This document shows, piece after piece, positions 1 to 30,625 of a DNA stretch of 52,347 nt. Under the pieces are notes generated by a model. The model searched no databases. It had not been told where the DNA came from and saw only the letters and a program-made list of their open reading frames with translations. Numbering within the stretch: position 1 is the stretch's first letter; every line of letters begins with the position of its first letter. The stretch lies in NCBI GenBank assembly GCA_021813445.1, contig JAKAKP010000130.1, positions 1 to 52,347 on the forward strand, in the 5' to 3' direction. Made by a program: the position numbers and the translations under genes. The DNA is from Deltaproteobacteria bacterium. GTDB taxonomy: Bacteria > Desulfobacterota > Desulfobaccia > Desulfobaccales > 0-14-0-80-60-11.

Positions 1-62
1 TTGATCCTTTCCTGAATCTCTTCCTTGGAAAGGTGGGGGATGCTTTTGGTTATATTTCCCAT
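1..62 (-). CDS. Partial gene, possible transposase N-terminus
   Basis: Only the first 21 codons are inside the window, on the minus strand, starting from an ATG at 62-60. A strong ribosome site (AAGGGGG) lies a few bases upstream. The visible protein includes HLSKEEIQERIK, which resembles the N-terminal helix-turn-helix start of IS630-type transposases. With so few residues this is only a suggestion. Bases 63-185 between this start and the next feature hold no gene. Confidence 0.4.
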   Translation of the reverse strand, partial: MGNITKSIPHLSKEEIQERI

Positions 63-185
63 GACTGCCCCCTTAATGATTTTGGAGCAGTCTATCATAT
101 TACTCATTAGAACGCAACTTGGTATTAACCCCGGTGCACTACTTGCTCCTGCTGGATTGAGTGAGCAGCCTTTGATCTAACCTTA

Positions 186-410
186 TCAATCGAACTCCAC
201 CCCCTGCTGGATCCTCAAAGTATCTTCGGCCGTGAGTATTGACAGATACCGCATGGTCATAAAAGGGCTGGCGTGGCCCAGGTGCAGCTGGAGGGCTTTG
301 GGGTTGCTGGTCTGCCGTAGCCTCTCGATGGCATCAGAGTGCCGCAAGAGGTGCGGGTATACCTTTTTGGTGAGGCCGGCCTGCTTTGCCGCCTCCTTGA
401 TGACATGCCA
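186..410 (-). pseudogene. Decayed 3' fragment of a short tyrosine integrase
   Basis: The minus strand encodes about 75 residues that match, nearly residue for residue, the C-terminal half of the intact integrase at 3373-3966. The fragment keeps the catalytic HLLRH, LGH and MRYL motifs and ends at its own stop (186-188). The match breaks off near base 410, where no start codon or ribosome site is present. The N-terminal part with the first catalytic arginine is missing, so the product cannot be an active recombinase. It is one of three copies in the first 4 kb. Confidence 0.85.
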
Positions 411-500
411 GGCCCAAACCGGCTGATAAGCCTGATTGTGGACTTTGTGCTATTTTGAGCTACAATGTGGCTCAGAAGGATATTTGAAAAGGAGGATCAC

Positions 501-767
501 ATGATGGCCTCAAATGCTGTTGTCCGCGCTCGCATTGACGAGCATATAAAGGAGGAAGCCGAAGCCGTGCTGGCTTCGATCGGGCTGACCGTGTCCGATG
601 CTTTTCGTATGATGATGACGCGCATTGCCTGCGAAAAGAAACTGCCCTTTGAGCCTCTTGTACCCAACAAGGAAACCATTGAGGCCATGAGAGAGGCGCG
701 GCGCGGTAAATTCGAGTGGGAAGGCCCTACTGACAAACTTCTTGAGCACTTGAATGCGGATCGTTAG
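501..767 (+). CDS. dinJ: RelB/DinJ-family antitoxin
   Basis: This 88-residue protein matches DinJ/RelB antitoxins. It has an N-terminal ribbon-helix-helix DNA-binding segment (VVRARIDEHIKEEAEAVL, then GLTVSDAFRMMMTRIA) and a C-terminal toxin-binding tail. In this family the protein neutralises a YafQ/RelE mRNA interferase and represses its own operon. The start at 501 is chosen because AAAAGGAGGATCAC lies directly before it; an upstream ATG at 465 has no such site. The partner toxin overlaps its 3' end (754-828) but is cut short, so this is an antitoxin without a functional partner. Confidence 0.88.
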   Translation: MMASNAVVRARIDEHIKEEAEAVLASIGLTVSDAFRMMMTRIACEKKLPFEPLVPNKETIEAMREARRGKFEWEGPTDKLLEHLNADR

Positions 768-828
768 GACATCCCGCCGTTTCGAACGTGACTTCAAACG
801 GGAAAAATCAGGGCATCCTCGGCCGTGA
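754..828 (+). pseudogene. Truncated YafQ/RelE-type toxin
   Basis: An ATG at 754, overlapping the dinJ stop, opens a frame that begins MRIVRTSRRFERDFKREK. This is the typical first strand and helix of YafQ toxins, which are normally about 90 residues. The match stops at codon 19; the last few codons before the TGA at 826-828 come from the integrase fragment that begins near 808. All catalytic residues of the family lie further downstream and are missing. The toxin was therefore destroyed by arrival or rearrangement of the integrase remnant. Confidence 0.8.
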
Positions 829-945
829 GGGTGGAAAGATAGCGCATGGTCATAACAGGCTGGCGTGCCCCAGGTGGAGTTGGAGGGCCTTGGGATTGCC
901 GGTCTGCTGGAGCCCTGGTAATGGTGCGTCTGAATGCCGCTAATT
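808..945 (-). pseudogene. Second decayed integrase fragment
   Basis: These bases align on the minus strand with the last third of the integrase at 3373-3966. The match starts at the GGGCATCCTC near its C-terminus and runs past the LGHASP region. The segment is more degraded than the copy at 186-410: the frame breaks around 913-925. The left junction lies inside the toxin gene and shares the short TCAGGGCATCC sequence with it. Confidence 0.8.
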
Positions 946-970
946 CTATCGGTCCCAGGGATTATTCTGA

Positions 971-1000
971 TTGACTATCTTCACCTGCTAGCCATAAACT
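971..1000 (+). promoter_or_regulatory. Possible promoter of the ApeA-like gene
   Basis: TTGACT (971-976) and TAAACT (995-1000) are separated by 18 bases in the AT-rich stretch ahead of the ApeA-like gene. They resemble a sigma-70 promoter. No other support is visible. Confidence 0.3.
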
Positions 1001-1063
1001 ATTTGGTATGGATTGTAATCTCTCTCTATTGTATTTGAATGCCTAACATACATTAGGTTGATT

Positions 1064-2518
1064 ATGCCTCAAAACTTATTAGGTCTCGATTATTTTAAGT
1101 GCAAGTCACTCGAAGGTGAATGGTGGGAACCAGATCAACCAGACAATAAATTCGAAGGTACATTATATATTGAAAAAAATAATCACGGCAAACTGACAAT
1201 TAGAGGTTATTCCAGTGTTTTATTTAAGTTAAGTCTCCGGATAATACAATCACCCCTTGGAGCCATATTCGGCCATCTTACAACCCAAAACAAATATAAG
1301 ATAACACTGTTTAATCCTGTTATATCACGTGGTGCGTCCCATTGTGAGGATCGAGACCTTAAAACAGATGTTCTCTTTTTTACCAACCACATCATAATTG
1401 GGGAACATGTTGCATCTGAAGATGATCAGATTGTCAACAGGGCCTTGTTAAGTGTAACATGGCTTGAGGAATGGTATGACAAAACCGGGTTCTCTGGCAA
1501 TGTTTCAAGCTATCTTCGTACAGAAAAAGTTGATCTCTTATATCAGGCAAACCATAGCCCATTTTACACAGTTGCAGCTGAGAGGCTGTTGCGCGTTATC
1601 TCTCATTATTCCGGGCCGCTATTTTTTGACGGCATTAAAAATTTCAAGGTTAGGGAATATAATCTAATTTAACTTCACTTCGAAAACCCCTTGTCAATTA
1701 ATGAAGTTATCCGCGAAGTTACGATTTGGCAATTATTTATAGCTTTTGCAATGCGTCAAACAACCTACCCGGGCAGCTTAAGACTTTCTATCGGCGAAAG
1801 AGAAGATGCACCTGTAGAGGTTGATTTAATTGTTCCTGGATGGAAAGGCAATTCTGAACCGAGAAGCTACCACAACTCAGAGATTATTTTCACTTTTTCG
1901 AAACTCGGATCAAGGGCTGAGGAATTCTTGCGAGCTTGGCGAGAAAAATATGACGTTATTGAGATTGCCGTCATGCTCTTCACTTCCCCCTATTATCATG
2001 AGGCACATGCTCATATAGATCTGCTTATGTATCTTCAAGCGCTTGAGGTTTTGCACCGATCCCTCTTTGATAGAGACAGGAAGGGCTACTTTCCAGATAG
2101 GAACACAAAAAAGAGTACGCTCCAAGCACTACAAGCAGCCATCCCAGCGAACCTTCCTGAGAGGTTGCCAGAAAAAATCTATAAGCAAATTAATTGGATT
2201 GGTAGTTTAACATTAGTCGATAGTTTGAAATATCTTTATAATCTCTATCCACTTAGCCTTCGTCCGCTCTTCCCTATGTGTGATGATGATATGGAGTTAT
2301 TGAAAGATGCGCGTAACTATCTCACTCATTTTGATGATCGAAAGGGGTTTAAACAAGATTTCCTATGGTCTCGTCAGCTATATTTTCTGTCTGAGAAGAC
2401 AAAGTTTTTCATCGAGATTTGTCTTCTGGGAGTAATTGGTATGAGTGATAGTGAGATTGCCCAATTACTCCACAACTTGGAACATTATAACGCGTTGAGT
2501 TCCCAGACTCATCGCTAA
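1064..2518 (+). pseudogene. ApeA-like HEPN defence protein interrupted by one stop codon
   Basis: Read through a single TAA at 1670-1672, this frame gives about 484 residues with no other interruption. The N-terminal part (GEWWEPDQPDNKFEGTLYI) matches the ApeA N-terminal domain. The C-terminal part has the HEPN RNase motif R-x4-H in KDARNYLTHF. ApeA is known as an abortive-infection, anti-phage protein. The upstream and downstream parts share the same frame, and the downstream part has only a weak TTG-type restart (1691). The gene is therefore either recently inactivated or read through at low level. The region is AT-rich compared with its surroundings, which suggests transfer. The start at ATG 1064 has only a weak ribosome site. 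Confidence 0.75.
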
Positions 2519-2560
2519 GGTGTTGAGTCTTTAACAATACGAATAAGCTGTAAACTGCTT

Positions 2561-3217
2561 TTAGTTAAAATATGAGGCAAAACTATGGTCAGGTAAAAAT
2601 GATGAAATCAGGTTGTAATATTCTCTGAGGAAAATCTTCATTTCAGTATAGATTTCTATGGCATTGTTTGCAGTAAAATCTTCAAGTCTGTTTGGTAAAT
2701 TCTTTAGTTGCTTATAAAGAACTTCTTTTTTATCAATAGTTAGTCCTTTTCCTTTAGGTACTCCTGTCCCAGCAGCTATTGACCAAGCTTGGGGATGTGC
2801 GATTATCTGATTCCTAATCAGAAAAAGATCATCAATAGCATTTCGATTCAAGGGTAATCTTGGCTTATTTTCCTTTTCAAAAGGTATTTTTTTAAAAAAT
2901 GCATAGATTCCAAGAAACTTATCATTTTTATATCTTTTTAATTGAGGTAATTGAGGTTCGTTTTTAAATTTATCTATTATCATGTCGAATAAAGCTTTCT
3001 CTAATGATTCATAAAAAAAGGGCATGAACATAATCGCAGTTCGAGCATAGCGTTTCCTATCTTCTTCATTAATACTTTGGTCTTGCGATTCTTTCAGAAA
3101 CATATTAATATCTCTATATAATGTTCCGCAAGTTGGCGAAATAAAATGATACTCGCTTTTAATAGATAACCTAAGATTACTATTTCCATTATATTCGTTA
3201 TGATCTATCTCAGACAT
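2561..3217 (-). CDS. HEPN-like protein, convergent with the ApeA-like gene
   Basis: I do not recognise the exact family of this 218-residue AT-rich protein. It is mostly helical and contains LIRNQIIAHPQAW, in which R-x5-H fits the R-x4-6-H signature of HEPN ribonucleases. It faces the ApeA-like gene tail to tail, with 40 bases between the stops. HEPN proteins are commonly toxins or abortive-infection effectors, so a defence role is a reasonable inference. No nucleotidyltransferase (MNT) antitoxin lies next to it. It could also be a HEPN protein without RNase activity. Confidence 0.55.
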   Translation of the reverse strand: MSEIDHNEYNGNSNLRLSIKSEYHFISPTCGTLYRDINMFLKESQDQSINEEDRKRYARTAIMFMPFFYESLEKALFDMIIDKFKNEPQLPQLKRYKNDKFLGIYAFFKKIPFEKENKPRLPLNRNAIDDLFLIRNQIIAHPQAWSIAAGTGVPKGKGLTIDKKEVLYKQLKNLPNRLEDFTANNAIEIYTEMKIFLREYYNLISSFLPDHSFASYFN

Positions 3218-3372
3218 AATGGTTTTCTTCCTCTAAGGTGTCTGAAAGGCTTACTTTAAAGATAGTTATTAAATTCCTTTCGAAATAAATTTCCCTTAAC
3301 CTGCCGCGGCCAATTATACAAATTAATTTCCTCTTTCTCTTTGGCTTTTGCTGAGTTTTTATTACTTTCATT

Positions 3373-3966
3373 TTACTCGAACTCCACCTCCTGCTGGATC
3401 CTCAGGGCATCCTCAGCCGTGAGGGTGGAGAGATACCGCATGGTCATAAAAGGGCTGGCGTGCCCCAGGTGAAGCTGTAGGGCTTTGGGGTTGCCGGTCT
3501 GCCGCAGCCTCTCTATGGCGTCCGAGTGGCGCAGGAGGTGCGGGTACACCTTCTTCGTGATGCCGGCTTGTTCTGCCGCCTCTTTAATGATTTGCCAGCC
3601 CCGCTTGCGGTTAATCCGAAAGAGTCTTTCATCGACACTCAGCTTCTTATCAAAGGCATAGCTTTTCAGCCGGTGGGCCAGGACGTCGGGGCAGGCCACC
3701 ATCCGGGGCTTCCGGCCCTTACCTTCGATATAGAGAACCGCGTGGCCACCGTGGGCGCCGATCTTTCTTGGGGTGATGCTCAGGGCTTCAGATATCCGCA
3801 ATCCCGTCTGAAACAGGGTCAGGATCAGGAGTCCGTCCCTCTCCTTATGCCTTCCCTGGCAGGCCCGGGCCATGGCCTGCACTTCTTCAGGAGTGAGGTA
3901 GGGGACTATGCATAGGGCCCGGGGAAGCAGGGCCTTGCTGGTGATGAGGGCGTGGTTATTGGGCAT
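3373..3966 (-). CDS. Short tyrosine recombinase/integrase
   Basis: This is a tyrosine recombinase of about 197 residues consisting almost only of the catalytic domain. The full catalytic set is visible: R in TGLRISEAL, K in GKGRKPR, HLLRHS, LGHASP and the nucleophile in MTMRYL. The usual N-terminal core-binding SAM-like domain is missing, as in some integron- or XerCD-like mini-recombinases. The start at 3966 is preferred because TTAGGAGCACC precedes it. Two decayed copies of its 3' half lie at 186-410 and 808-945, so this gene has been duplicated repeatedly. Two small paralogous genes lie directly upstream and may be co-transcribed. Confidence 0.85.
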   Translation of the reverse strand: MPNNHALITSKALLPRALCIVPYLTPEEVQAMARACQGRHKERDGLLILTLFQTGLRISEALSITPRKIGAHGGHAVLYIEGKGRKPRMVACPDVLAHRLKSYAFDKKLSVDERLFRINRKRGWQIIKEAAEQAGITKKVYPHLLRHSDAIERLRQTGNPKALQLHLGHASPFMTMRYLSTLTAEDALRIQQEVEFE

Positions 3967-3984
3967 GACTGGTGCTCCTAACAA

Positions 3985-4170
3985 CTACTTGACGATTTTG
4001 AGGGAATAAGGTTTTTTGATATCCCAGATCAATATCTTCCATCCGGGACCATGTTTTTCGGCCATTTTCTGGAAGATGGTATTCCAGGCTTCGATGTCCT
4101 CCTCAGAGTAAGCAACGCGATCGGATTGCCAATGCCCTTTCACAAATCCGCCTTCAATGGCTTTCATCAT
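3985..4170 (-). CDS. Small protein, tandem paralogue B
   Basis: This 61-residue protein is unrecognised. It starts MMKAIEGGFVKGHWQSDR, contains an acidic helix (YSEEDIEAWN) and ends with WKILIWDIKKP. It is clearly related to the gene before it (4167-4352): both share M-MK-I-GG, -KG-W--DR, a central acidic helix and LIWDIK. Its ATG overlaps the stop of that gene (ATGA), so the two are translationally coupled. It ends 19 bases before the integrase start, hinting that it belongs to the integrase module. No catalytic motif is visible. Confidence 0.7.
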   Translation of the reverse strand: MMKAIEGGFVKGHWQSDRVAYSEEDIEAWNTIFQKMAEKHGPGWKILIWDIKKPYSLKIVK

Positions 4171-4352
4171 CTGACCCGCCGAATCTTGGGTTTGTCATCC
4201 ACTTTGATATCCCAGATTAGCTTCAGCCACCGAGGATCATGTTTTCCTGCTTCCCGGAAGGCCGCATTCGCGAAATCAATTTCTTCCTGAGTGTGGGCTC
4301 CCCGATCATGGAACCAGAAGCCCTTCCGGTAGCCGCCATCGATGACCTTCAT
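4167..4352 (-). CDS. Small protein, tandem paralogue A
   Basis: This 61-residue protein starts at an ATG with a good site (AAGGAGAGG) upstream. It reads MKVIDGGYRKGFWFHDRG, then HTQEEIDFANAAFREAGK and LKLIWDIKV. It is a diverged duplicate of the next gene (3985-4170). The repeated W, aromatic and DR positions look structural. The family is unknown to me; the position before an integrase makes a small accessory or regulatory protein plausible but unproven. Confidence 0.7.
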   Translation of the reverse strand: MKVIDGGYRKGFWFHDRGAHTQEEIDFANAAFREAGKHDPRWLKLIWDIKVDDKPKIRRVR

Positions 4353-4392
4353 CAATTACCTCTCCTTATGTGAACTAAAGACCAGAGGAAAA

Positions 4393-4500
4393 ATAGGACA
4401 ATTGAAACTATTGTCCAATTATGGGGTCAAAAACGGATGGAAGTCAAGCGAAAAGGCGGGGAAATCTGCCAGAACTGGGGCAATAATTGGACATTATCAC
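4393..4500. promoter_or_regulatory. Inverted repeats with a shared TTGTCCAATTAT/ATAATTGGACA motif
   Basis: The 200-base gap between the paralogue pair and mqsR holds GGACAATT...ATTGTCC (about 4397-4416), followed near 4482-4493 by ATAATTGGACA and near 4508 by GTCCAATTA. These are repeated, partly palindromic sites between divergent transcripts and look like regulator binding sites. Which protein binds is unknown. No gene is supported here. Confidence 0.4.
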
Positions 4501-4537
4501 TGTTTTCGTCCAATTACAAATACCTAAAGAAAACGGC

Positions 4538-4570
4538 TTGACAATACACCGCTATGGTGTATTTTATAAC
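4538..4570 (+). promoter_or_regulatory. mqsRA promoter with palindromic operator
   Basis: A TTGACA (4538-4543) overlaps a perfect palindrome AATACACC-GCTAT-GGTGTATT (4542-4562), followed by TATTTT (4560-4565) at a 16-base spacing. The arrangement puts the palindrome across the core promoter, as expected for autorepression by the downstream MqsA protein, which carries a helix-turn-helix domain. Confidence 0.65.
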
Positions 4571-4589
4571 TGTTCCACAAAACCTGAAA

Positions 4590-4910
4590 ATGACAGAAAA
4601 GCGCCAGCCCACCTACGATCTTGAAGCATTCAAAGCTGCGTTTAGAAGCGTGGAGAAGCTGGCAATTACAGGCACGGCACTCAGAAGCGCCGCGGCCCTG
4701 GGATTTGGCCGCGCCGAAATCATAGCCACGATCCAGACCATGAAACGAGAGCATTTTTATAAATCCATGACGGCCTACGCCGATCACCGACTTTGGCAGG
4801 ACGTGTATCACGTCCCCTCAGCGGTCGGCGTACTCTATGTCAAATTTACCGCCGACGTTTTAACCGAGTTTTTGCTGCTCTCCTTCAAGGAGAAAAACCA
4901 TGATCACTAA
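4590..4910 (+). CDS. mqsR: MqsR toxin (mRNA interferase)
   Basis: This 106-residue protein matches MqsR, a RelE-fold ribonuclease that cuts mRNA mainly at GC-containing sites. The diagnostic block FYKSMTAYADHRLWQDVY and the closing LLLSFKEK are both present. The ATG at 4590 is preferred over 4554 because the latter lies inside the operator palindrome and would add residues foreign to the family. The gene overlaps mqsA by 11 bases, with the toxin first as usual for this system. Length and motifs look intact, so the locus is probably active. Confidence 0.92.
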   Translation: MTEKRQPTYDLEAFKAAFRSVEKLAITGTALRSAAALGFGRAEIIATIQTMKREHFYKSMTAYADHRLWQDVYHVPSAVGVLYVKFTADVLTEFLLLSFKEKNHDH

Positions 4911-5358
4911 TCCAGTATGTCCGAAGACCGGGGCCCCGATGCATCGCAGCGTGCGCCCCATGACGTTGACCTATAAGGACGAGTCCGTCACCTTTGATAT
5001 GCCCGGCTGGTATTGTAACGATTGCGACGAGGGTATACACAGCGGCAAAGATATGAAGGTATCCGACCGCATGTTGAATCGCCTTAAGGCCCGTAGCGAG
5101 GGGTTGCTTGAACCGGGAGACATCCGGCGCATCCGCAAAAAGCTCGGTCTTTCTCAGGAGACAGCTGGGCTATTAATCGGCGGCGGTCCGCGGGCATTCC
5201 AGAAATACGAAAGCGGCGATATGCTACCAAGCCGGGCGGTCAGCAGCGCCTTGATTCTTCTCGATCATGACCCTGATGCCTTGATGGTTCTAAAGGAGCG
5301 GCATGAGGCAATCAAAGCTCCCGAATCATCGCCTTCGTACTCTCCTGAGAGTCTTTAA
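4900..5358 (+). CDS. mqsA: MqsA-type antitoxin
   Basis: This 152-residue antitoxin has an N-terminal zinc-binding half (WYCNDC, residues about 37-42) and a C-terminal Xre-type helix-turn-helix (LGLSQETAGLLIGGGPRAFQKYE). It binds and blocks MqsR and represses the operon. E. coli MqsA uses two CxxC pairs; here the first pair reads CPKT, so one ligand is replaced by threonine. Zinc may be held differently or only weakly. The C-terminus carries a Ser/Pro-rich tail of about 12 residues beyond the usual end. Confidence 0.9.
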   Translation: MITNPVCPKTGAPMHRSVRPMTLTYKDESVTFDMPGWYCNDCDEGIHSGKDMKVSDRMLNRLKARSEGLLEPGDIRRIRKKLGLSQETAGLLIGGGPRAFQKYESGDMLPSRAVSSALILLDHDPDALMVLKERHEAIKAPESSPSYSPESL

Positions 5359-5413
5359 CTATTTTCATTTAATACCCTGGCATCATTAATGCCTAGAGCT
5401 AATTTTTTCTGCT

Positions 5414-5500
5414 TGCGAAAAAAGCGAATTAAGCGAAAAAAGGCTCCAGCTCTGGGTTTGCGCTGCGAAAAAACTGCGAATTAAGTGCGAAAAAAGGGGG
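5414..5500 (+). repeat. GCGAAAAAA-type repeat, copy A
   Basis: An 86-base block is built of five or six short units of the form GCGAAWWAA, arranged as three units, a central GGCTCCAGCTCTGGGTTTGC spacer, then three units. Near-identical blocks occur at 7974-8057 (same orientation) and 26620-26705 (inverted). The block ends immediately before the ATG of the Phd-like gene, and its final G run serves as that gene's ribosome site. Iteron-like or recombinase-binding roles are possible. Confidence 0.85.
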
Positions 5501-5503
5501 GCC

Positions 5504-5776
5504 ATGACCACGAGTCCATCCGGAATGAGAATCATGATTCAGGTAGGGGCCTCTGAGGCCAGAACTCATTTTGCCCAGCTGCTGGAACGGGTGGCCAGGG
5601 GGAAAGAAAGAATTATCATCACCCGCCGTGGCGTGCCGGTGGCTGAGTTAAGACCATTTCAGGGTGCTATCCAAAAGAATGCACAGGAGGCAGTGAAAGC
5701 CCTTAAGGCCTTTGGTGAAAAACATCCCCTGGGAGACCTCTCCATCCGCGAAATGATTGAAGAGGGGCGGATGTAA
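5504..5776 (+). CDS. Phd/YefM-family antitoxin, partner missing
   Basis: This 90-residue protein contains the Phd/YefM core VGASEARTHFAQLLERVARG and IIITRRGVPVAELRP. In this family the N-terminal half binds the operator and the C-terminal tail wraps the toxin. Downstream, an overlapping ATG (5776) opens a frame of only 12 codons before a stop, so the expected VapC-like toxin is absent. The start follows the G run at the end of repeat copy A. The gene is either a leftover antitoxin or a stand-alone protective one. Confidence 0.8.
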   Translation: MTTSPSGMRIMIQVGASEARTHFAQLLERVARGKERIIITRRGVPVAELRPFQGAIQKNAQEAVKALKAFGEKHPLGDLSIREMIEEGRM

Positions 5777-5828
5777 TGTCACTGCTCGTCCCCACCTGGA
5801 AGACCTCCCATTGAATTCCAGAGGCGAA

Positions 5829-6188
5829 CTATAACGCCATCCGCCGCTCTTTCATTAAATCAACTATCGGCTTGGCCATTTCCGCCGAAAACCCGGCGGC
5901 CTTCAGGTCCCCCTCGACTTTAAGGCCGACTTCCTCAACATTGTCATTAGCCGCCCGGCTTATCTCGTACTTTGCCCGAATAAGGGCCTCGGCCTGTTCC
6001 CTGGACATTCCTGCTTCTTGCAAATCCTCAAGATGATCAAAGTCGTTCAAGGGTCGCCCGATTCTCTCAACTTTTTTAATGACTTTATTCAGACCCGCAT
6101 TCAAATCCGCCAGGCCTCTCTTAATCTCCGCCAACTCCGGCACCAGCAGTTCGTTCAGAGCAGCCATGACCTCTTCCTTATCCGACAT
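5829..6188 (-). CDS. Helical protein sharing an N-terminal motif with the 11.5 kb gene
   Basis: This 119-residue protein has no known family. Its N-terminus EEVMAALNELLVPEL followed by an IKR-rich helix is strikingly like EEVTAAFQKLLLPEL in the protein at 11513-11806. A predicted long helix (residues about 10-50) suggests a coiled coil. The C-terminal half (GMSREQAEALIRAKYE, AAGFSAEMAKPIVDLM) looks like a helical UBA-like repeat pair. It starts with a site ACTAAGGAGGCCCAAC-like (AGGAGGCC) upstream of 6188. Both members of this pair lie near orphan antitoxins. Confidence 0.6.
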   Translation of the reverse strand: MSDKEEVMAALNELLVPELAEIKRGLADLNAGLNKVIKKVERIGRPLNDFDHLEDLQEAGMSREQAEALIRAKYEISRAANDNVEEVGLKVEGDLKAAGFSAEMAKPIVDLMKERRMAL

Positions 6189-6261
6189 GTTGGGCCTCCT
6201 TTTTAGGGGATAGGTTATCCTTCAGTTATGGTGCCAAAAGATAGATACTGAAAATCAGTTG

Positions 6262-6849
6262 CTATTTGTTTTTTCTGTGATGCTTTAACCAATTCTTTAG
6301 TTTCAGTTCCAGGTCAGATAACCATTCGCATTCTAAGTCTGATGGTTCCTTTATTCTATAAAGAAAATCATCCATACCCTCAAGATATGAGTGTAAGCTT
6401 TCTCTTAAGCATTTTTTATATAGATCGCGATCAATATCCGGATTATTCATCAATTCCAGGGCTTCCATTTCCAACCTGATTGCCACGTCCAGATAATTTT
6501 GATATCCTTGAGGAGCAGGATAGTATCCGCTTTTCTCGATAACCTTGAAAAACCATTCAAAAATGTCTTTCACCGGCTCCGAATTTTCTATATTTGCCAT
6601 CTCGTACGCACAGTGGCAAAGGGATTGAATCATGTTGTCCAGGTTAATGCCGGTTAACTTCATCCATTGCTCAATCTGACTAACCGTTAGCCCCTTCTCT
6701 CGCCAATACTTGAGTTCTGGGCGGTAGGTTAAAATCATCTCAACAGTGCCAGCTCGCCAGAGATGATCAAGGAGAACATATCTTATCATTTCGTTATCTT
6801 TTCGAGCCATGGCTATAAATTTTTTCACGAAATCATTAAAGAAACTCAT
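6262..6849 (-). CDS. Hypothetical helical protein
   Basis: This 195-residue protein, on the minus strand, is unrecognised. It is rich in aromatic and charged residues and predicted to be all-helical, with no signal peptide, membrane segment or cysteine cluster. It starts after GGGGGAAAACAAAGGC. It lies between the two direct copies (A and B) of the GCGAAAAAA repeat, together with the Phd-like gene, the gene at 5829 and the recombinase at 6972, and so may move with them. Confidence 0.5.
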   Translation of the reverse strand: MSFFNDFVKKFIAMARKDNEMIRYVLLDHLWRAGTVEMILTYRPELKYWREKGLTVSQIEQWMKLTGINLDNMIQSLCHCAYEMANIENSEPVKDIFEWFFKVIEKSGYYPAPQGYQNYLDVAIRLEMEALELMNNPDIDRDLYKKCLRESLHSYLEGMDDFLYRIKEPSDLECEWLSDLELKLKNWLKHHRKNK

Positions 6850-6971
6850 GCCTTTGTTTTCCCCCTGATTATTAACTTTCCATAGTGTCCGAGAAGCCTT
6901 AATCTCCAGTTCCCGAAATTGCTACCTCAAAGGGCCGTAGCTCCCCTGCATAGTCCCCTGTTCAGACCAAA

Positions 6972-7943
6972 TCATTTAAGATAATGCTCAGTTATATCCC
7001 CCCTCACGTGACCCATCTCGTCAGAAACCTGGGACAACGACTCCAGATACGACTTGCCTTCCTGCTGGACCTCTTGGTGGCGGTCCTGGGCATAATTATA
7101 CCTGAACCCATGGCTGCCCTTGGTCTTCCCCTGTGGATTTTTATACTGCTCCCCTGCTCGTTCGCAAGCTGCTTTAATATCTGCCCTATAGGCGTTTTTG
7201 TCGGATTCGTTTTTGATGCCCCACTTCTGACCATGATGGAGTTTAGCTACCTCCTTTTTAATCTCCTGGTAGGTCTTCATCTCCACGCGAATTTCCCTGG
7301 GCTTACCGCCTTTGCCTTTTCGGATGGACAAGACCCCTTTTCCGTTCCTTATCCCTTTCAGGTCTTCCCGCCCGAACCTAACCTCGTGTACCCTAGCGCC
7401 TCCTTCACGCTGCACGGCCGCAATAGTGCGATACCGGTCGTCTTTTATGTTCTCGATTACCCTTTCCGGGTTCTTATAGGCCCGGGTGCCTTCGAATCGG
7501 GGTGCAGACTGATTTGCTATTCTGCGGATCTCCCTTAGCTCCTTGCTGAAATCGTAGGTTCGCCCGGTCCCTTTCTCCTGATTGTAATGATTCAATGCCT
7601 GCTCCAGCTTCTCATGGGCGGAGCAGTACTGGCGGAGGGTGGCGTTGGCGCAGCCGGCATCCAGCTTCGATTGCAGAAATCCTTTGATATGACTGACCTC
7701 AATTTTCTCCAGGTCCCGGATACCGTAGTTTTCTCTCGCATAAGCGAAGCTCTGTCGCCAAACGTCCTGGTAGGCGTCCTGGGTGCTATAACTAAAGACC
7801 CCAATATTTTTTCCGATTTCATGCCAGGTCCTGGCGCCGGCTTCCCTCGCAACCTCTTTCGCAGCGTGCTTGGATTGCCCGATATGATTCAATCCGGAGC
7901 GCTGCCACAAAAAGTTGACCTGGCCTTTGACGCTGCCGTGCAT
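6972..7943 (-). CDS. Tyrosine recombinase
   Basis: This 323-residue tyrosine recombinase appears complete. A helical N-terminal core-binding part (about residues 30-130) is followed by a catalytic domain with R in GGARVHEVRF (about 182), K in RKGKGGKPREI, the HGFR box and a final MGH...EHYLK with the nucleophilic tyrosine three residues from the end. That C-terminus is shorter than in most integrases. The start has a strong GGGAGG site. The promoter region upstream is repeat copy B, 30 bases from the start codon. This adjacency makes the repeat a candidate substrate or regulatory site for this enzyme. Confidence 0.8.
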   Translation of the reverse strand: MHGSVKGQVNFLWQRSGLNHIGQSKHAAKEVAREAGARTWHEIGKNIGVFSYSTQDAYQDVWRQSFAYARENYGIRDLEKIEVSHIKGFLQSKLDAGCANATLRQYCSAHEKLEQALNHYNQEKGTGRTYDFSKELREIRRIANQSAPRFEGTRAYKNPERVIENIKDDRYRTIAAVQREGGARVHEVRFGREDLKGIRNGKGVLSIRKGKGGKPREIRVEMKTYQEIKKEVAKLHHGQKWGIKNESDKNAYRADIKAACERAGEQYKNPQGKTKGSHGFRYNYAQDRHQEVQQEGKSYLESLSQVSDEMGHVRGDITEHYLK

Positions 7944-7973
7944 CCAGCCTCCCTTAATAATTTTTTCTAAGAT

Positions 7974-8057
7974 TGCGAAAAAAGCGAATTAAGCGAAAAA
8001 AGGCTCCAGTGCTGGGTTTGCGCTGCGAAATAAGTGCGAAGAAATGCGAAAAAAGGG
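7974..8057 (+). repeat. GCGAAAAAA-type repeat, copy B
   Basis: The first 45 bases match copy A almost exactly (units TGCGAAAAAA, GCGAATTAA, GCGAAAAAA, then GGCTCCAG). The second half has drifted slightly (GCGAAATAA, GCGAAGAAA, GCGAAAAAA). It is in the same orientation as copy A, 2.5 kb away, and sits between the recombinase start and the end of the NlpC/P60 gene. Confidence 0.85.
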
Positions 8058-8065
8058 TCCCCCCG

Positions 8066-8728
8066 TTACTGGTATTGAACCTCAAAGACCCGCTTGGCCA
8101 CCACGAAGGTGTCCTCGTAGTAGGGCTGACGTAAATTGGTGATGATCACGCCATACCGATGATTGGAGGCGTGGATCATCTTTCCTCCCCCTAGATAGAT
8201 GCCGGCATGGCCGATATGGTGGCCTCCCCTGCGGAAGAACAGCAGATCCCCAGGGAGCAGCTTGGAAAAGTCCATATCGCGGGTTACGACCTTCCCCACC
8301 TGGGCCTGCTCTGCGCTGGAGCGGGGCAGATCGATCTTGAAGCCCTTATAGATATACTGCACGAACCCGGAGCAATCCGTGGCCGAGCTGTTGGCCAGGG
8401 AGGCTCCCCGGCGGTAGCGGGCCCCGCAATAATGGTTCGCCTGGGCCAGGACCAGGTCGGGGAAAGCGAGTCCTTTACTGCCGCTTTCTCCCATGGGGCA
8501 GTAAATGGCGGGATTTTCAGAGCCCAGAAGCTGCAGCACGAAACAGCCGTCCCGCCGGGGAATTACCCGCACCAGGAGGGCGCTTTTCTGGGATCTTTCG
8601 GGCCTTTTCCTCTTGGTTTTAACGGAGCTGCTTTTCTTAATGCCCTTGATAGGCACTGATTGAGCCGCCCCGGGGGATAAGACCAGGGCCAACGAGATCA
8701 CTGCGCCAAGAATCATCCTACTCGCCAT
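8066..8728 (-). CDS. Secreted NlpC/P60 peptidoglycan hydrolase
   Basis: The 220-residue product starts with a signal peptide (about residues 1-24), followed by a basic linker rich in Lys and Arg and a C-terminal NlpC/P60 cysteine peptidase domain. The catalytic residues are visible: Cys in TDCSGFVQYIY, His in HIGHAGIYLG and a polar third site in MIHASNH. Enzymes of this family cut cell-wall peptides. In mobile elements they often open the wall for a transfer apparatus. AAGGAGGTGCTGG sets the start. A phage-type or housekeeping origin cannot be excluded. Confidence 0.85.
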   Translation of the reverse strand: MASRMILGAVISLALVLSPGAAQSVPIKGIKKSSSVKTKRKRPERSQKSALLVRVIPRRDGCFVLQLLGSENPAIYCPMGESGSKGLAFPDLVLAQANHYCGARYRRGASLANSSATDCSGFVQYIYKGFKIDLPRSSAEQAQVGKVVTRDMDFSKLLPGDLLFFRRGGHHIGHAGIYLGGGKMIHASNHRYGVIITNLRQPYYEDTFVVAKRVFEVQYQ

Positions 8729-8869
8729 CCAGCACCTCCTTGGTTAGGGTCCATCTTGAAGTGGAAATTTTCTCCCCTGCTTTCTCCTGGTCTTTTCGCC
8801 GTATTTTTTGCCCCGGCGTGTGGGTGAACATTTCTTAAGTTTTTTTGTTGCAAGCTTTTTTAACGTGGT

Positions 8870-9055
8870 GCGTATCCACGGCGCCTAAGCGCAAGATAGA
8901 GCTATGGTCCCGACGGCAAGTCTAAAGAGACGAGTCGGAGACACGATATGATAACTGACCAGCCCAAGTGGGCGGGCCAGATGAAACGGGAAGTTGAACT
9001 CCCTGGTCTGACCTAAACGGAGGGTCAGACCAGAGAGCGTTTATGATAACTGACG
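8870..9055. repeat. Hairpin-linker array, part 1
   Basis: This gap between genes holds successive short hairpins: CGTGG/CCACG, CCGAC...GTCGG with inner GTCT/AGAC, GCCC-AAGT-GGGC, and a perfect 11-pair stem CTGGTCTGACC/GGTCAGACCAG (9003-9033). They are separated by linkers ATGATAACTGA (8948-8958), ATGAAACGGGAAGTTGA (8981-8997) and again ATGATAACTGA (9043-9053). The same architecture fills the next two gaps. No coding potential is apparent. Confidence 0.75.
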
Positions 9056-9063
9056 CCGGCTAA

Positions 9064-9471
9064 CTACTCTGGGCGCCAGGTGACCCGGGAAAGCTCAAAC
9101 CGGCCGAACGGCGAATGCCGGTCGAAAAGCTGCCGGCGCCGCCACTCATCCTGATCCAGCGGAAAATCCAGCCGGTCAGTCGGCACGCCCCGGAGGCGCA
9201 AGAACTCTTCCGCCTCAGCCCGGGAAATCTTCCGAACCGCGAAGAATGGTTCGTAATCGATCAATGCCCAAATGTGCTGATAATACGTCGTTTGGGAGCG
9301 GAACAGCGCTTCGGTCGAAAAATCCGAGAATGGCCAGAAGCGAATCTTTACGCCTCGTGGATCCCAATGCGGATCCCTCCAAACCGGGATGCCGCGCCGG
9401 TAGAGCTGTTTGCGAGCGTAGTTGGCGGCCTCGGCTACCTCAAAGCTCACCCTTTTGGCAGATTTTGCCAT
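9064..9471 (-). CDS. Hypothetical protein inside the hairpin array
   Basis: This 135-residue soluble protein is unrecognised. It is rich in Arg, Trp and Phe (KIRFWPFSDFSTEALFRSQ, then EWRRRQLFDRHSPFGRFE), a composition compatible with nucleic-acid binding, although no known fold is obvious. It starts after GAGAGGAGATTTCAA, a clear ribosome site. Hairpin-linker arrays flank it on both sides, so it is the nearest candidate for a protein that recognises the hairpins. That idea is inference from position only. Confidence 0.6.
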   Translation of the reverse strand: MAKSAKRVSFEVAEAANYARKQLYRRGIPVWRDPHWDPRGVKIRFWPFSDFSTEALFRSQTTYYQHIWALIDYEPFFAVRKISRAEAEEFLRLRGVPTDRLDFPLDQDEWRRRQLFDRHSPFGRFELSRVTWRPE

Positions 9472-9486
9472 TTGAAATCTCCTCTC

Positions 9487-9636
9487 AAGAAGGAATGGGA
9501 TGCTGACCCAGAATGGGTCAGAAATGGAAGAACCTGACGGCCATGAAAAGCATGGCCGAGGGAATGGAATTTTCAGGCCCTCAAAGAAGTTGCAGGGCGG
9601 AAGTGGGATTACTGAGCGGCCGACACTATGGCCAGC
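9487..9636. repeat. Hairpin-linker array, part 2
   Basis: Four clear units occur in 150 bases. Linkers are AAGGAATGGGATGCTGA (9490-9506), GAAATGGAAGAACCTGA (9521-9537), AGGGAATGGAATTTTCA (9559-9575) and CGGAAGTGGGATTACTGA (9598-9615). Between them lie perfect hairpins CTGACCC/GGGTCAG, CGGCCATG/CATGGCCG, GCCCT/AGGGC and GAGC-GGCC/GGCC-GCTC. Hairpin sequences differ while linkers are conserved, the opposite of a simple tandem duplication. Confidence 0.8.
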
Positions 9637-10344
9637 TCAGATAGAATGATGGCCTGAGTCCTCAAAATACTGATCCCAGACCAGATAATACGATGCTATG
9701 CTCCCGATCCCGATAATTACCCAGGGAGTAATAATCCCCCAGCATATGCTCAGCAACGGCAGCAAAAACTTCACCAAATTGGAAATATAATATATTCCCA
9801 GAAAAGTCGCGATGCCGGCGAGAAGGTAGCATAGCTTCATGGGATTTTCAATTATAATATCCATTATGGAATCCATTAAGGATATCATCAGAGGAGTAAA
9901 AAAAAACACCCCTACTATCACGAGCAGACTGGCATATGGCGCCCAAGAGAAGATAGTTTCAGCGCATTTTGTGATAGTTTCGGTGTTTCCAGTGATAGTT
10001 TCAGTGATAGCTAAGCAGATATCCCCCAGCGCTACGAAATCACCGGTAATAAGATGTATGCCGGGAGATATCGCGGCTGCGGCATAAGAGCCTATCACAA
10101 CCATGGCAAATGCAAAGCACCTTTTAATGTGCGGTTGCACATTTGAGAATGCGTAACTAACAACGTCACGCAGTAAAACTGCAATAGGGCTTGCCAAAGT
10201 GATTACAGCAAAGGTCAAGACGCTCTGTGGAAATCCGCCGATCAAACTACCCAAATAAAGCAGAATGAAAAAAGAACCGATGTCCATCAAAAGTTCTTTC
10301 CAAATTTCATCCCATGTGAAAAAGGATTTGGCAATAGCCTTCAT
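9637..10344 (-). CDS. Multi-pass membrane protein inside the hairpin array
   Basis: This protein of about 235 residues has five or six predicted membrane segments, such as SFFILLYLGSLIGGF, LLVIVGVFFFTPLMISLM and ICWGIITPWVIIGIGSI. I do not recognise a family. The start at 10344 is chosen for the strong AAGGAGG upstream; part of that ribosome site can pair with CCTC in a small stem (10354-10366). Hairpin-linker arrays lie directly downstream and upstream. A pore-like or holin-like effector is possible but nothing in the sequence proves it. Confidence 0.6.
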   Translation of the reverse strand: MKAIAKSFFTWDEIWKELLMDIGSFFILLYLGSLIGGFPQSVLTFAVITLASPIAVLLRDVVSYAFSNVQPHIKRCFAFAMVVIGSYAAAAISPGIHLITGDFVALGDICLAITETITGNTETITKCAETIFSWAPYASLLVIVGVFFFTPLMISLMDSIMDIIIENPMKLCYLLAGIATFLGIYYISNLVKFLLPLLSICWGIITPWVIIGIGSIASYYLVWDQYFEDSGHHSI

Positions 10345-28658: not shown

Positions 28659-28718
28659 GTTAGGACTCTTTGCGAAAAAGGGTTGAACTTGGAAGGTCTC
28701 CTCCCATATAATTTTTCC

Positions 28719-29942
28719 ATGCTCGGAAACATCCGGACTAAGGAAAAATGCCCTCGCTGCCGCGGGCGTTTTCAGGGGGAGCCCTTAACCTGCCCTGCCT
28801 GCGGGACCGTTCCAACCCGGTATTATATTGATTTCTTTTGGAAGAAAAAGAAGCACAAGCTCTATTCCGATGAGGACGGCTACCCCTTAAGTTCCTGGGA
28901 GCAATCCCACCGCCTCCTTACCCATATCCGCCATGAAATTGACCGGGAGAAAAAGAGCCAAGGTAAGTTCCGTTTCGACCCACGGAACTACGTGCGCCGG
29001 GACCTGAACGAGCTGAAATTTGAGAACTACATCCTTAAGTGGTTAGCCTGGCGGACCGAAGAAGTTGATCTGCCGGACGGCATTTCCAGATCATATTTAA
29101 AAGGTGCGGAGTCTTACGCCCGTAATCATTTGCTGCCCTTTTTTGGCGACATGAACATCAGGGAAATTGATGGAGCACAATTTGAAAGGTTTCGCCGCAA
29201 GCTTCCCCGTAACTTGAGCGCCAAGACAGTTCATAATATTTTTGGCCTGCTCCACAAAATCCTGCGGGACGCCAAGCGCGTGGGGGACATTCAATGCCTT
29301 CCCGAGTTCCCGGTAATAAAATTCGTTGTCCCCAGGATCAAATGGATCGACGAGGAAGACCAAGCCCGTATCCTGGCTGAAGTGCGTAATCCGGTTTATT
29401 ACGCCCTGTTCCTCTTTTTGATGAAACAGGGTTGTCGGCCAAATGAGGCCCGGGCCCTTAAATGGGATCGGATAGATTTTGATCGCAACGTGGTGACAAT
29501 TAATGCTGCCATCGATGAAGGCGTTTTTCGGGAGCGTACCAAGACCAGGGATGATCGGCCTCTCCCCCTCCATCCAGACGTCAGAGCAGCCCTAGAAGCC
29601 ATTCCTACCCGGGCTCTGAGCGGCTTTGTTTTTACCTACCGGGGAGAACCGCTCAAGGAAAATACGGTCCAAGATTATTGGCGACGTGCTACCGCGAGGG
29701 CGGGGATTAAAATCAGCCTCTATCAAGGAACAAAACATTCGGGCGGGTCCCAGGCCATTAATGCCGGCGTAGATTTGAAGGTTATCCAGGAAATGATGGG
29801 TCACAAGGATCCACGCACCACGGCCCGCTATCTTGAAGTCTGCATTGAGAGAAAAAAATCTTATTGGGACCGTCCCAGGCCCCAAAGTGGCCCCGGCACA
29901 AAAAAGAAGAAAGGTAAGTTATTAGATTTCCAGAAGAAATAA
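28719..29942 (+). CDS. Element integrase with N-terminal zinc ribbon
   Basis: This protein of about 407 residues begins with a zinc ribbon (KCPRCRGRFQGEPLTCPACG), then an arm/core-binding region (about 60-190) and a tyrosine-recombinase catalytic domain. The first arginine (GCRPNEARALKW), the GHKDPRTTARYL end and the nucleophilic tyrosine are present. The usual HxLR box reads QGTKH, so the first His is Gln and the second catalytic Arg is Lys. It ends 7 bases before the tRNA-derived attachment site, so it most likely integrated this element. ATG 28719 is preferred; the upstream TTG at 28683 has no proper site. Whether the altered box is active is unknown. Confidence 0.88.
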   Translation: MLGNIRTKEKCPRCRGRFQGEPLTCPACGTVPTRYYIDFFWKKKKHKLYSDEDGYPLSSWEQSHRLLTHIRHEIDREKKSQGKFRFDPRNYVRRDLNELKFENYILKWLAWRTEEVDLPDGISRSYLKGAESYARNHLLPFFGDMNIREIDGAQFERFRRKLPRNLSAKTVHNIFGLLHKILRDAKRVGDIQCLPEFPVIKFVVPRIKWIDEEDQARILAEVRNPVYYALFLFLMKQGCRPNEARALKWDRIDFDRNVVTINAAIDEGVFRERTKTRDDRPLPLHPDVRAALEAIPTRALSGFVFTYRGEPLKENTVQDYWRRATARAGIKISLYQGTKHSGGSQAINAGVDLKVIQEMMGHKDPRTTARYLEVCIERKKSYWDRPRPQSGPGTKKKKGKLLDFQKK

Positions 29943-29948
29943 TAGAAG

Positions 29949-29980
29949 TGTGGTGGGTTCGAATCCCACCCCCTCCGCCA
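29949..29980 (+). repeat. Right attachment site: orphan tRNA 3' end
   Basis: The sequence GTGGGTTCGAATCCCACC plus CCCTCCGCCA forms a complete T-arm, 3' acceptor half, G discriminator and CCA end of a serine-type tRNA. The 5' part of a tRNA is absent: the integrase stop is immediately upstream. This is the signature of integration into a tRNA gene. The other copy, with the intact tRNA, should lie left of base 1. Confidence 0.88.
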
Positions 29981-29982
29981 TT

Positions 29983-30225
29983 ATGAAAGTGGGCAGTGAC
30001 CAGTGGTCAGTAATTAGTGAAAAAGACCGGGAACCGCCGGAGTACCTCATGGGACTCACCTATATCCATAAAAATTGCGAAATCTACCTGGGGGAGGAGA
30101 ATACCTACCGGGAGGACATGACTTCTCTCCCTCTGGATTGTATTATTACAGAAGAGGAATATATCGCCCTGCCGCCGGAGAAAAAAAAGAACTACGAGGT
30201 CCTGGTGCCTAAGCCGGAAAAATAG
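29983..30225 (+). CDS. Small hypothetical protein
   Basis: This frame of up to 80 codons starts immediately after the attachment site. It reads MGLTYIHKNCEIYLGEENTY and DCIITEEEYIALPPEKKKN further on. The first 20 codons overlap a dispersed CAGTGACCAGTGGTCAG-type repeat and are doubtful; ATG 30049 would give a 58-residue protein. No ribosome site is obvious. It may be a real small protein or chance coding. Confidence 0.35.
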   Translation: MKVGSDQWSVISEKDREPPEYLMGLTYIHKNCEIYLGEENTYREDMTSLPLDCIITEEEYIALPPEKKKNYEVLVPKPEK

Positions 30226-30347
30226 GAGCCGGGGGCCAGGGAGCAGGGTGCAGGGGCGCATAGGGCGGGCATTGCCCGCCATTTTGATGTTTATCTCGAT
30301 ATCTTAATCCGCAATTTCTTGGCTAAGCGGGGTAAACCGGGTATATA

Positions 30348-30412
30348 TAAAAGGTGTCCAAGCAGAGCTTGGACGGAAAATCTGCCTTCCCAAGCTGAGC
30401 TTGGGAACGAGA
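30348..30412. repeat. Dispersed hairpin repeat, copy 1
   Basis: GGTGTCCAAGCAGAGCTTGG and a following TTCCCAAGCTGAGCTTGGGA form two adjacent hairpins. A direct copy lies at 31073-31136. Such short palindromic repeats between genes are common in this type of genome. Confidence 0.75.
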
Positions 30413-30418
30413 GGGAAA

Positions 30419-30512
30419 GTCCCCCTTTTCTAAAGGGGGATTTGGGGGGATTATGAGGCGATTGCTAATATCCCCCGCCCCCCTTTAGAAAAGGGGGGAG
30501 CAATATTGCTGA
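30419..30512. repeat. Long inverted repeat (MITE-like)
   Basis: CCCCCTTTTCTAAAGGGGGA at 30421 and CCCCCCTTTAGAAAAGGGGG near 30480 form a large imperfect palindrome around GATTATGAGGCGATTGCTAA. It lies between the element and the tRNA gene. No gene is supported from 30226 to 30532. Confidence 0.6.
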
Positions 30513-30532
30513 AGATAAAGTTTATCCTTAGC

Positions 30533-30625
30533 GGAGAGATGCCCGAGAGGCTGAAGGGGCACGATTGGAAATCGTGTGAGCGCCTAATAAGTGCTCCGAG
30601 GGTTCGAATCCCTCTCTCTCCGCCA
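30533..30625 (+). tRNA. tRNA-Ser (GGA)
   Basis: The acceptor GGAGAGA pairs with TCTCTCC, followed by discriminator G and encoded CCA. The anticodon arm CACGA-TTGGAAA-TCGTG carries anticodon GGA. A long variable arm is present, as in class II tRNAs, and the T-loop reads TTCGAAT. It is about 550 bases right of the attachment site and differs from that site's tRNA fragment in the T-stem and acceptor, so it was not the target. Confidence 0.95.

What the first reader, a model, noticed from the sequence alone, without database searches (positions are those of the whole stretch)
1064..3217. ApeA-like defence gene with a single in-frame stop facing a second HEPN gene
One TAA (1670-1672) is the only break in a complete ApeA-like frame with its RNase motif intact. 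A convergent gene carries another R-x5-H HEPN motif. The AT-rich pair looks like a defence island that has recently been inactivated or is regulated by readthrough.
Basis: partly seen in the sequence, partly recalled or inferred. Interest (0 to 1): 0.5.

Follow-up and report, generated by a model that had tools for sequence, protein, structure and literature searches.

The report
ApeA defence gene with stop codon
A bacterial anti-phage gene of a known family (ApeA) is cut in two by one stop codon, beside a small intact gene of unknown, possibly RNA-cutting, family, in a stretch that also holds recombinase gene fragments; it is most likely an ordinary case of a defence gene that recently broke.

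Summary
A frame at 1064-2518 (+) has one break, TAA at 1670-1672. Read through, it matches Pfam ApeA_NTD1 across the stop (positions 2-271 of 271, E 4e-28) and HEPN_Apea (1-135 of 136), with R-x4-H intact. The stop replaces one residue in an aligned block where five homologues all have a residue; five phylum frames with a HEPN_Apea domain are unbroken. I read it as a recently inactivated ApeA gene. Readthrough is not supported: TAA is an ordinary stop here (12 of 36 genes picked). The convergent 218-aa gene is intact. Its R-N-x4-H motif is kept in its one full-length relative (Desulfobacca sp.), and an acidic residue is invariant in three sequences. No profile matches it, and two low-confidence models disagree about a HEPN fold, so 'second HEPN gene' stays unproven. 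The pair is not conserved: both relatives of the 218-aa protein lie at another locus without ApeA. New here: the block sits between a 203-aa tyrosine recombinase gene and two 3'-end remnants of that gene, beside toxin-antitoxin genes. Ordinary overall; interest is low.

The parts
1064..1672 (+). 5' part of the ApeA-like gene (ATG to premature TAA)
   Evidence: Pfam ApeA_NTD1 2-127/271, E 3.5e-14
1670..1672 (+). premature in-frame TAA
   Evidence: at that alignment column all five other ApeA-type proteins have a residue
1673..2518 (+). 3' part of the ApeA-like frame: end of ApeA_NTD1 and the HEPN_Apea domain
   Evidence: HEPN_Apea 1-135/136 E 9.4e-13, ApeA_NTD1 187-271 E 3.7e-6; one continuous NTD1 match when read through
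2312..2329 (+). R-N-Y-L-T-H, the HEPN R-x4-H motif of ApeA
   Evidence: an R-N-x3-H motif is present in 4 of the 5 unbroken homologous frames (not in that of G125)
2561..3217 (-). intact convergent gene, 218 aa, orphan family, possibly HEPN
   Evidence: relatives found only in G025 and G023
2795..2815 (-). R-N-Q-I-I-A-H motif of the 218-aa protein
   Evidence: kept as R-N-Q-V-I-C-H in the Desulfobacca relative
3373..3984 (-). 203-aa tyrosine recombinase gene, catalytic domain only, open frame
   Evidence: Pfam Phage_integrase 2-167/172, E 1.4e-21; no N-terminal domain hit
808..940 (-). remnant of the recombinase 3' end (84%)
190..415 (-). remnant of the recombinase 3' end (86%)
465..767 (+). 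RelB-type antitoxin gene between the two remnants
   Evidence: Pfam RelB E 9e-19
4554..5358 (+). mqsR-mqsA toxin-antitoxin pair upstream of the recombinase
   Evidence: Pfam MqsR_toxin E 5e-30, MqsA_antitoxin E 1e-20

Best explanation
This is an ApeA anti-phage gene (beta-rich N-terminal domain plus HEPN RNase domain) acquired with AT-rich DNA into a recombinase-marked accessory zone. A single nonsense codon in the N-terminal domain has inactivated it, recently enough that the rest of the frame is still clean. Shown: the family, the position of the stop, the open frame after it, and unbroken homologous frames. Inferred: that an intact copy would sense phage infection and cut RNA; that the present allele makes only a 202-residue stub; that the HEPN part is not made, since the first in-frame starts after the stop (TTG at 1691, ATG at 1751) have no ribosome-binding site that I could see by eye. 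The neighbouring 218-aa gene is a separate, intact accessory gene.
For: One continuous ApeA_NTD1 match across the stop, 99 bits read through against 53 and 27 bits for the halves. PADLOC Cas13-ApeA and PDC-S58 models match the 3' part, and PDC-S58 the 5' part too. At the stop's column all five aligned homologues have a residue. Unbroken frames of 477-503 aa with a HEPN_Apea domain occur in G085, G398, G241, G125 and G003. 0 of 20,000 shuffles are stop-free downstream. TAA ends 12 of 36 genes picked in the window. Similar G+C at third positions in both halves: 0.35 and 0.40. Two recombinase remnants next to it show decay in the zone.
Against: No reads were available, so an assembly error or a minority-strain base is possible. 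No homologue above 26% local identity was found, so loss of selection could not be measured. A clean remainder of the frame would also fit an error. Of the five unbroken homologous frames only the HEPN_Apea domain was tested by profile, not the N-terminal domain, and one of them (G125) lacks the R-N-x3-H motif.
Confidence: 0.72

Rival explanations
1. The TAA is a sequencing, assembly or strain-mixture artefact and the population carries an intact ApeA gene.
For: The genome is a draft of 166 contigs; the frame is otherwise perfect.
Against: A single wrong consensus base is uncommon in such assemblies (general knowledge, not tested); other pieces of the zone are decayed.
Confidence: 0.2
2. Two-part or regulated protein: readthrough of TAA, or separate translation of the HEPN part.
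For: Both halves keep family-like sequence; a TTG start is possible at 1691.
Against: TAA is a standard stop in this genome; the stop lies inside the NTD1 match; no ribosome-binding site is visible by eye before the first in-frame starts (sequence printed); none of the five unbroken homologous frames has a break.
Confidence: 0.06
3. The ApeA-like gene and the 218-aa gene form one functional defence unit (two HEPN RNases, or toxin and partner).
For: Adjacent and convergent with a 42-base gap, both AT-rich, both with R-N-x-H-type motifs.
Against: Relatives of the 218-aa protein in G025 and G023 lie in a region with genes that look like rlmE and yebC (by eye), without ApeA nearby; neither genome has a HEPN_Apea hit; convergent, not an operon.
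Confidence: 0.08
4. The 218-aa protein is a member of a new HEPN RNase family (toxin or defence).
Against: No Pfam, NCBIfam or PADLOC hit over a cut-off and only weak PHROGs and PDB hits; first model pLDDT 46; the second model, of the relative, pLDDT 54, has no row titled HEPN; by the tool's note Z under about 13 may mean little for helical bundles; G023's copy has lost the motif by truncation.
Confidence: 0.45

Closest known systems
ApeA anti-phage protein (Pfam ApeA_NTD1 PF18862 + HEPN_Apea PF18739; PADLOC Cas13-ApeA / PDC-S58)
   Same: Both domains, their order, length (484 residues read through, against 477-503 in five homologous frames) and R-x4-H motif
   Different: One nonsense codon in the N-terminal domain; 16-22% identity to the homologues aligned
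HEPN superfamily (as reviewed in PMC3710099, passages seen)
   Same: The 218-aa protein has a conserved R-N-x4-H at a predicted helix end and an invariant acidic residue in the long helix before it
   Different: No profile or confident fold match; seen here only in three genomes of one order
Small tyrosine recombinases of about 200 residues (FimB/FimE-type invertases; resemblance recalled, plus NCBIfam invertase hits far below cut-off)
   Same: Catalytic domain only, about 200 aa
   Different: Best NCBIfam similarity is to XerA and XerD, also far below their cut-offs; lies beside toxin-antitoxin and defence genes

Membership tests
ApeA | ApeA N-terminal domain 1 | tested here: met
   PF18862 2-271/271, 99 bits against a cut-off of 25.5, when read through
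ApeA | Apea-like HEPN domain with R-x4-6-H | tested here: met
   PF18739 1-135/136, 47.6 bits against 24.4; R417-x4-H422
ApeA | Single unbroken reading frame | tested here: not met
   TAA at 1670-1672; so it is filed as a broken ApeA gene, not a working one
ApeA | Anti-phage activity | not testable with these tools
   needs phage challenge
HEPN superfamily (218-aa protein) | R-x4-6-H motif, polar residue after R | tested here: met
   RNQIIAH / RNQVICH in the two full-length members; definition from passages of PMC3710099
HEPN superfamily (218-aa protein) | Acidic residue in helix 2 | tested here: inconclusive
   E70 invariant in 3 of 3 sequences and in predicted helix 51-83, but the model has mean pLDDT 46
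HEPN superfamily (218-aa protein) | Four-helix HEPN fold | tested here: inconclusive
   9 of 50 VIA rows of model 1 are titled HEPN; no row of model 2 is, one chain at Z 3.0 (1wty) being HEPN by recall only; best Foldseek E 1.0 and 0.70
HEPN superfamily (218-aa protein) | Match to a described HEPN profile | tested here: not met
   no HEPN family in the Pfam, NCBIfam, PADLOC or PHROGs results; so it is not filed as HEPN here

The most novel reading that the evidence does not exclude
The small catalytic-domain recombinase is the active agent of the zone. Its own gene ends act as recurrent junctions at which toxin-antitoxin, defence (ApeA, a type I-C-like CRISPR-Cas operon, type ISP restriction, HepT with a nucleotidyltransferase) and probable arsenic-resistance modules are added in Desulfobacca-like bacteria, leaving 3'- or 5'-end remnants behind, and the broken ApeA gene is one worn-out module. 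Against it: the breakpoints of the remnants differ.
Probability: 0.12. Interest if true: 0.5.

Novelty: new member of a known kind. Interest (0 to 1): 0.17.

Why it matters
It is a clear example of turnover of an anti-phage gene by a point nonsense mutation inside an accessory zone. It matters mainly as a caution: domain-level searches (Pfam, PADLOC) still call both halves positive, so a defence census that ignores frame breaks could count this as a working ApeA system. The 218-aa family may be a new HEPN branch, and the recombinase remnants are a lead on how defence genes accumulate in this order.

Tried and rejected
Readthrough or recoding of TAA: rejected as unlikely. Compensated frameshift around the stop: rejected, since NTD1 matches as one stretch in one frame. 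ApeA plus 218-aa protein as one conserved system: rejected on present data.

Close relatives of the ApeA: none confirmed in IMG/VR, in a scan by short patterns; three plasmids at 21.5%; 3 of 148 genomes including the own one, at most 26%; HEPN_Apea in 7 of 395 phylum genomes including the own one, and in 0 of 14 control genomes. DNA relatives of 900-3400 in plasmids: none. Relatives of the 218-aa protein: none in plasmids, phages or viral contigs; 3 of 395 phylum genomes including its own; one locus in genome contigs, whose 14,555-base contig has the length of G025:C199. hhalign of the 218-aa profile against my ApeA alignment: nothing. PDB by sequence: nothing significant for the 218-aa protein or the 3' part of ApeA. 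Structure models of the 218-aa family were poor (pLDDT 46 and 54), and the better one gave no HEPN-titled match.

A cassette model with fixed junctions at the recombinase 3' end: not supported. The two remnants begin at different points of the recombinase gene (positions 383 and about 453 of the 615-base query) and end at different points (608 and 583) (the 453 is worked out), and a 5'-end fragment also exists (G025:C104). The rows listed by the paper searches (15 of 40 papers; 4 of 4; 10 of 532; 1 of 1) held no paper on this locus by title or abstract start; only passages of PMC3710099 and PMC7699616 were seen.

Full report
What was checked. The window is a whole contig, G000:C143, of a draft genome of 4.18 Mb in 166 contigs. 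Its right part looks like ordinary chromosome (ATP synthase, glmU- and glmS-like genes, by eye); the middle holds a TrwB/TraG-type conjugation coupling protein.

Is it one gene? Yes. The two halves separately hit ApeA_NTD1 (positions 2-127 and 187-271 of 271), and the second half HEPN_Apea. Read through with X at the stop, they give one ApeA_NTD1 match over 2-271 (99 bits, cut-off 25.5) and HEPN_Apea over 1-135 of 136 (47.6 bits, cut-off 24.4). In an alignment with five other proteins of the phylum (16-22% identical) each has a residue at the column of the X; that the block is a beta strand is my inference. One search found HEPN_Apea in 7 of 395 genomes including this one. Five of the other six (G085, G398, G241, G125, G003) have unbroken frames of 477-503 aa; G003's was not put into the alignment. 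The sixth, G040, is in two pieces at two contig ends; its N-terminal piece is in the alignment. An R-N-x3-H motif stands in four of the five unbroken frames, not in G125's. I did not test these five for the N-terminal domain by profile. The 281 codons after the stop have no further stop, while the other two frames have 12 and 31; none of 20,000 base shuffles was stop-free.

What the stop means. TAA ends 12 of the 36 window genes that I picked, so it is a normal stop in this organism. The first in-frame starts after it are TTG at 1691 and ATG at 1751, and I see no ribosome-binding site before them (sequence, by eye). I therefore read the allele as a nonsense mutant that makes a stub of 202 residues. 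That it is recent is an inference from the clean remainder. I could not measure relaxed selection, because no homologue above 26% local identity was found, and I could not see reads, so an artefact keeps a probability of about 0.2.

The facing gene. The gene at 2561-3217 (-) is intact, with AGAGGA upstream of its ATG. Its family is tiny as far as searched: 3 of 395 phylum genomes counting its own, one locus in genome contigs, none in plasmids, phages or viral contigs. The one full-length relative (225 aa, 35% identical) keeps F-L-I-R-N-Q-V-I-C-H-P against F-L-I-R-N-Q-I-I-A-H-P; E70 is invariant in all three sequences. The model of the window protein puts E70 in a long helix (51-83) and R135 near the end of helix 125-140; that of the relative puts R142 in helix 132-147. 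That is the arrangement which PMC3710099 gives for HEPN domains (passages seen). Against this, no profile library names it HEPN. The second model (of the relative, pLDDT 54) has none by title; 1wty at Z 3.0 is HEPN by recall only. So 'HEPN' is a fair lead at about 0.45, not a result. The relatives in G025 and G023 lie between genes that look like rlmE and yebC (by eye), with a 133-aa ORF (G025) or a PIN-like gene (G023, by eye) beside them and without ApeA; neither genome has a HEPN_Apea hit. The G023 copy is truncated to 118 aa and lacks the motif.

The surroundings. A 203-aa tyrosine recombinase gene (3373-3984, -) follows, and its 3' end recurs at 808-940 and 190-415, in the same orientation. 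Between the two remnants is a RelB-type antitoxin gene, and upstream of the recombinase are mqsR and mqsA. A second copy, 89% identical over nearly the whole gene, lies in G000:C164 beside a cas operon: cas3, cas5 and cas1 by Pfam, the others and the label type I-C by eye. In one search, 12 of 59 genomes including this one had DNA matches; only ten candidates per genome were scored there, so this is a lower bound. Of its 23 rows, eight cover at least 500 of the 615 query bases (not all of them open frames: G025:C103 and G001:C105 look frame-broken). Five of these eight have toxin-antitoxin, defence or probable arsenic-resistance genes close by (G000:C143, G000:C164, G025:C67, G025:C103, G002:C77; Pfam); three do not in what I saw (G025:C181, near a contig end; G001:C105; G013:C207; ORFs by eye). 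I have no control for how often such neighbours occur elsewhere in these genomes. This fits an accessory zone that grows by insertion and decays. Fixed cassette junctions are not supported, because the remnants' ends differ.

Verdict. A real, broken member of a known defence family, next to an intact orphan gene with a HEPN-like motif.

Noticed in passing
window 190-415, 808-940, 3373-3984: A 203-aa tyrosine recombinase gene and two 3'-end remnants of it in the same orientation, enclosing a RelB-type antitoxin gene and the ApeA/218-aa block.
   Followed up: partly
L013 (G000:C164) 130-9359: Second copy of the recombinase gene directly before a cas operon (type I-C by eye) and repeats; the contig end (9233-9359) is 85% like window 3-128, so both contigs may break at related repeated sequences.
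   Followed up: partly
window 3985-4355 (-); L043 11133-11786: Two tandem, related small ORFs (61 and 62 aa) upstream of the recombinase, with relatives (up to 88% DNA identity) in G002:C31; no Pfam family over its cut-off.
   Followed up: no
L041 (G025:C104) 3870-4410: A 5'-end fragment of the recombinase gene, then a small gene that looks HTH/antitoxin-like by eye, then a second recombinase start: about 40 bases repeated on both sides of an insert of roughly 375 bases.
   Followed up: partly
window 28683-30625: Tyrosine integrase (28683-29942) and, 12 bases after it, a 26-base copy (88%, E 0.02) of the 3' end of tRNA-Ser (30533-30625): a possible attachment site of the conjugative element at about 8-30 kb.
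   Followed up: partly
L055 (G040:C60 start) and L049 (G040:C37 end): Another ApeA-type gene of the phylum lies in two pieces at two contig ends, either an assembly gap or an insertion.
   Followed up: no
L038 (G025:C67) 5096-10001: HTH gene, recombinase, nucleotidyltransferase/HepT-like pair and type ISP restriction enzyme in a row.
   Followed up: partly
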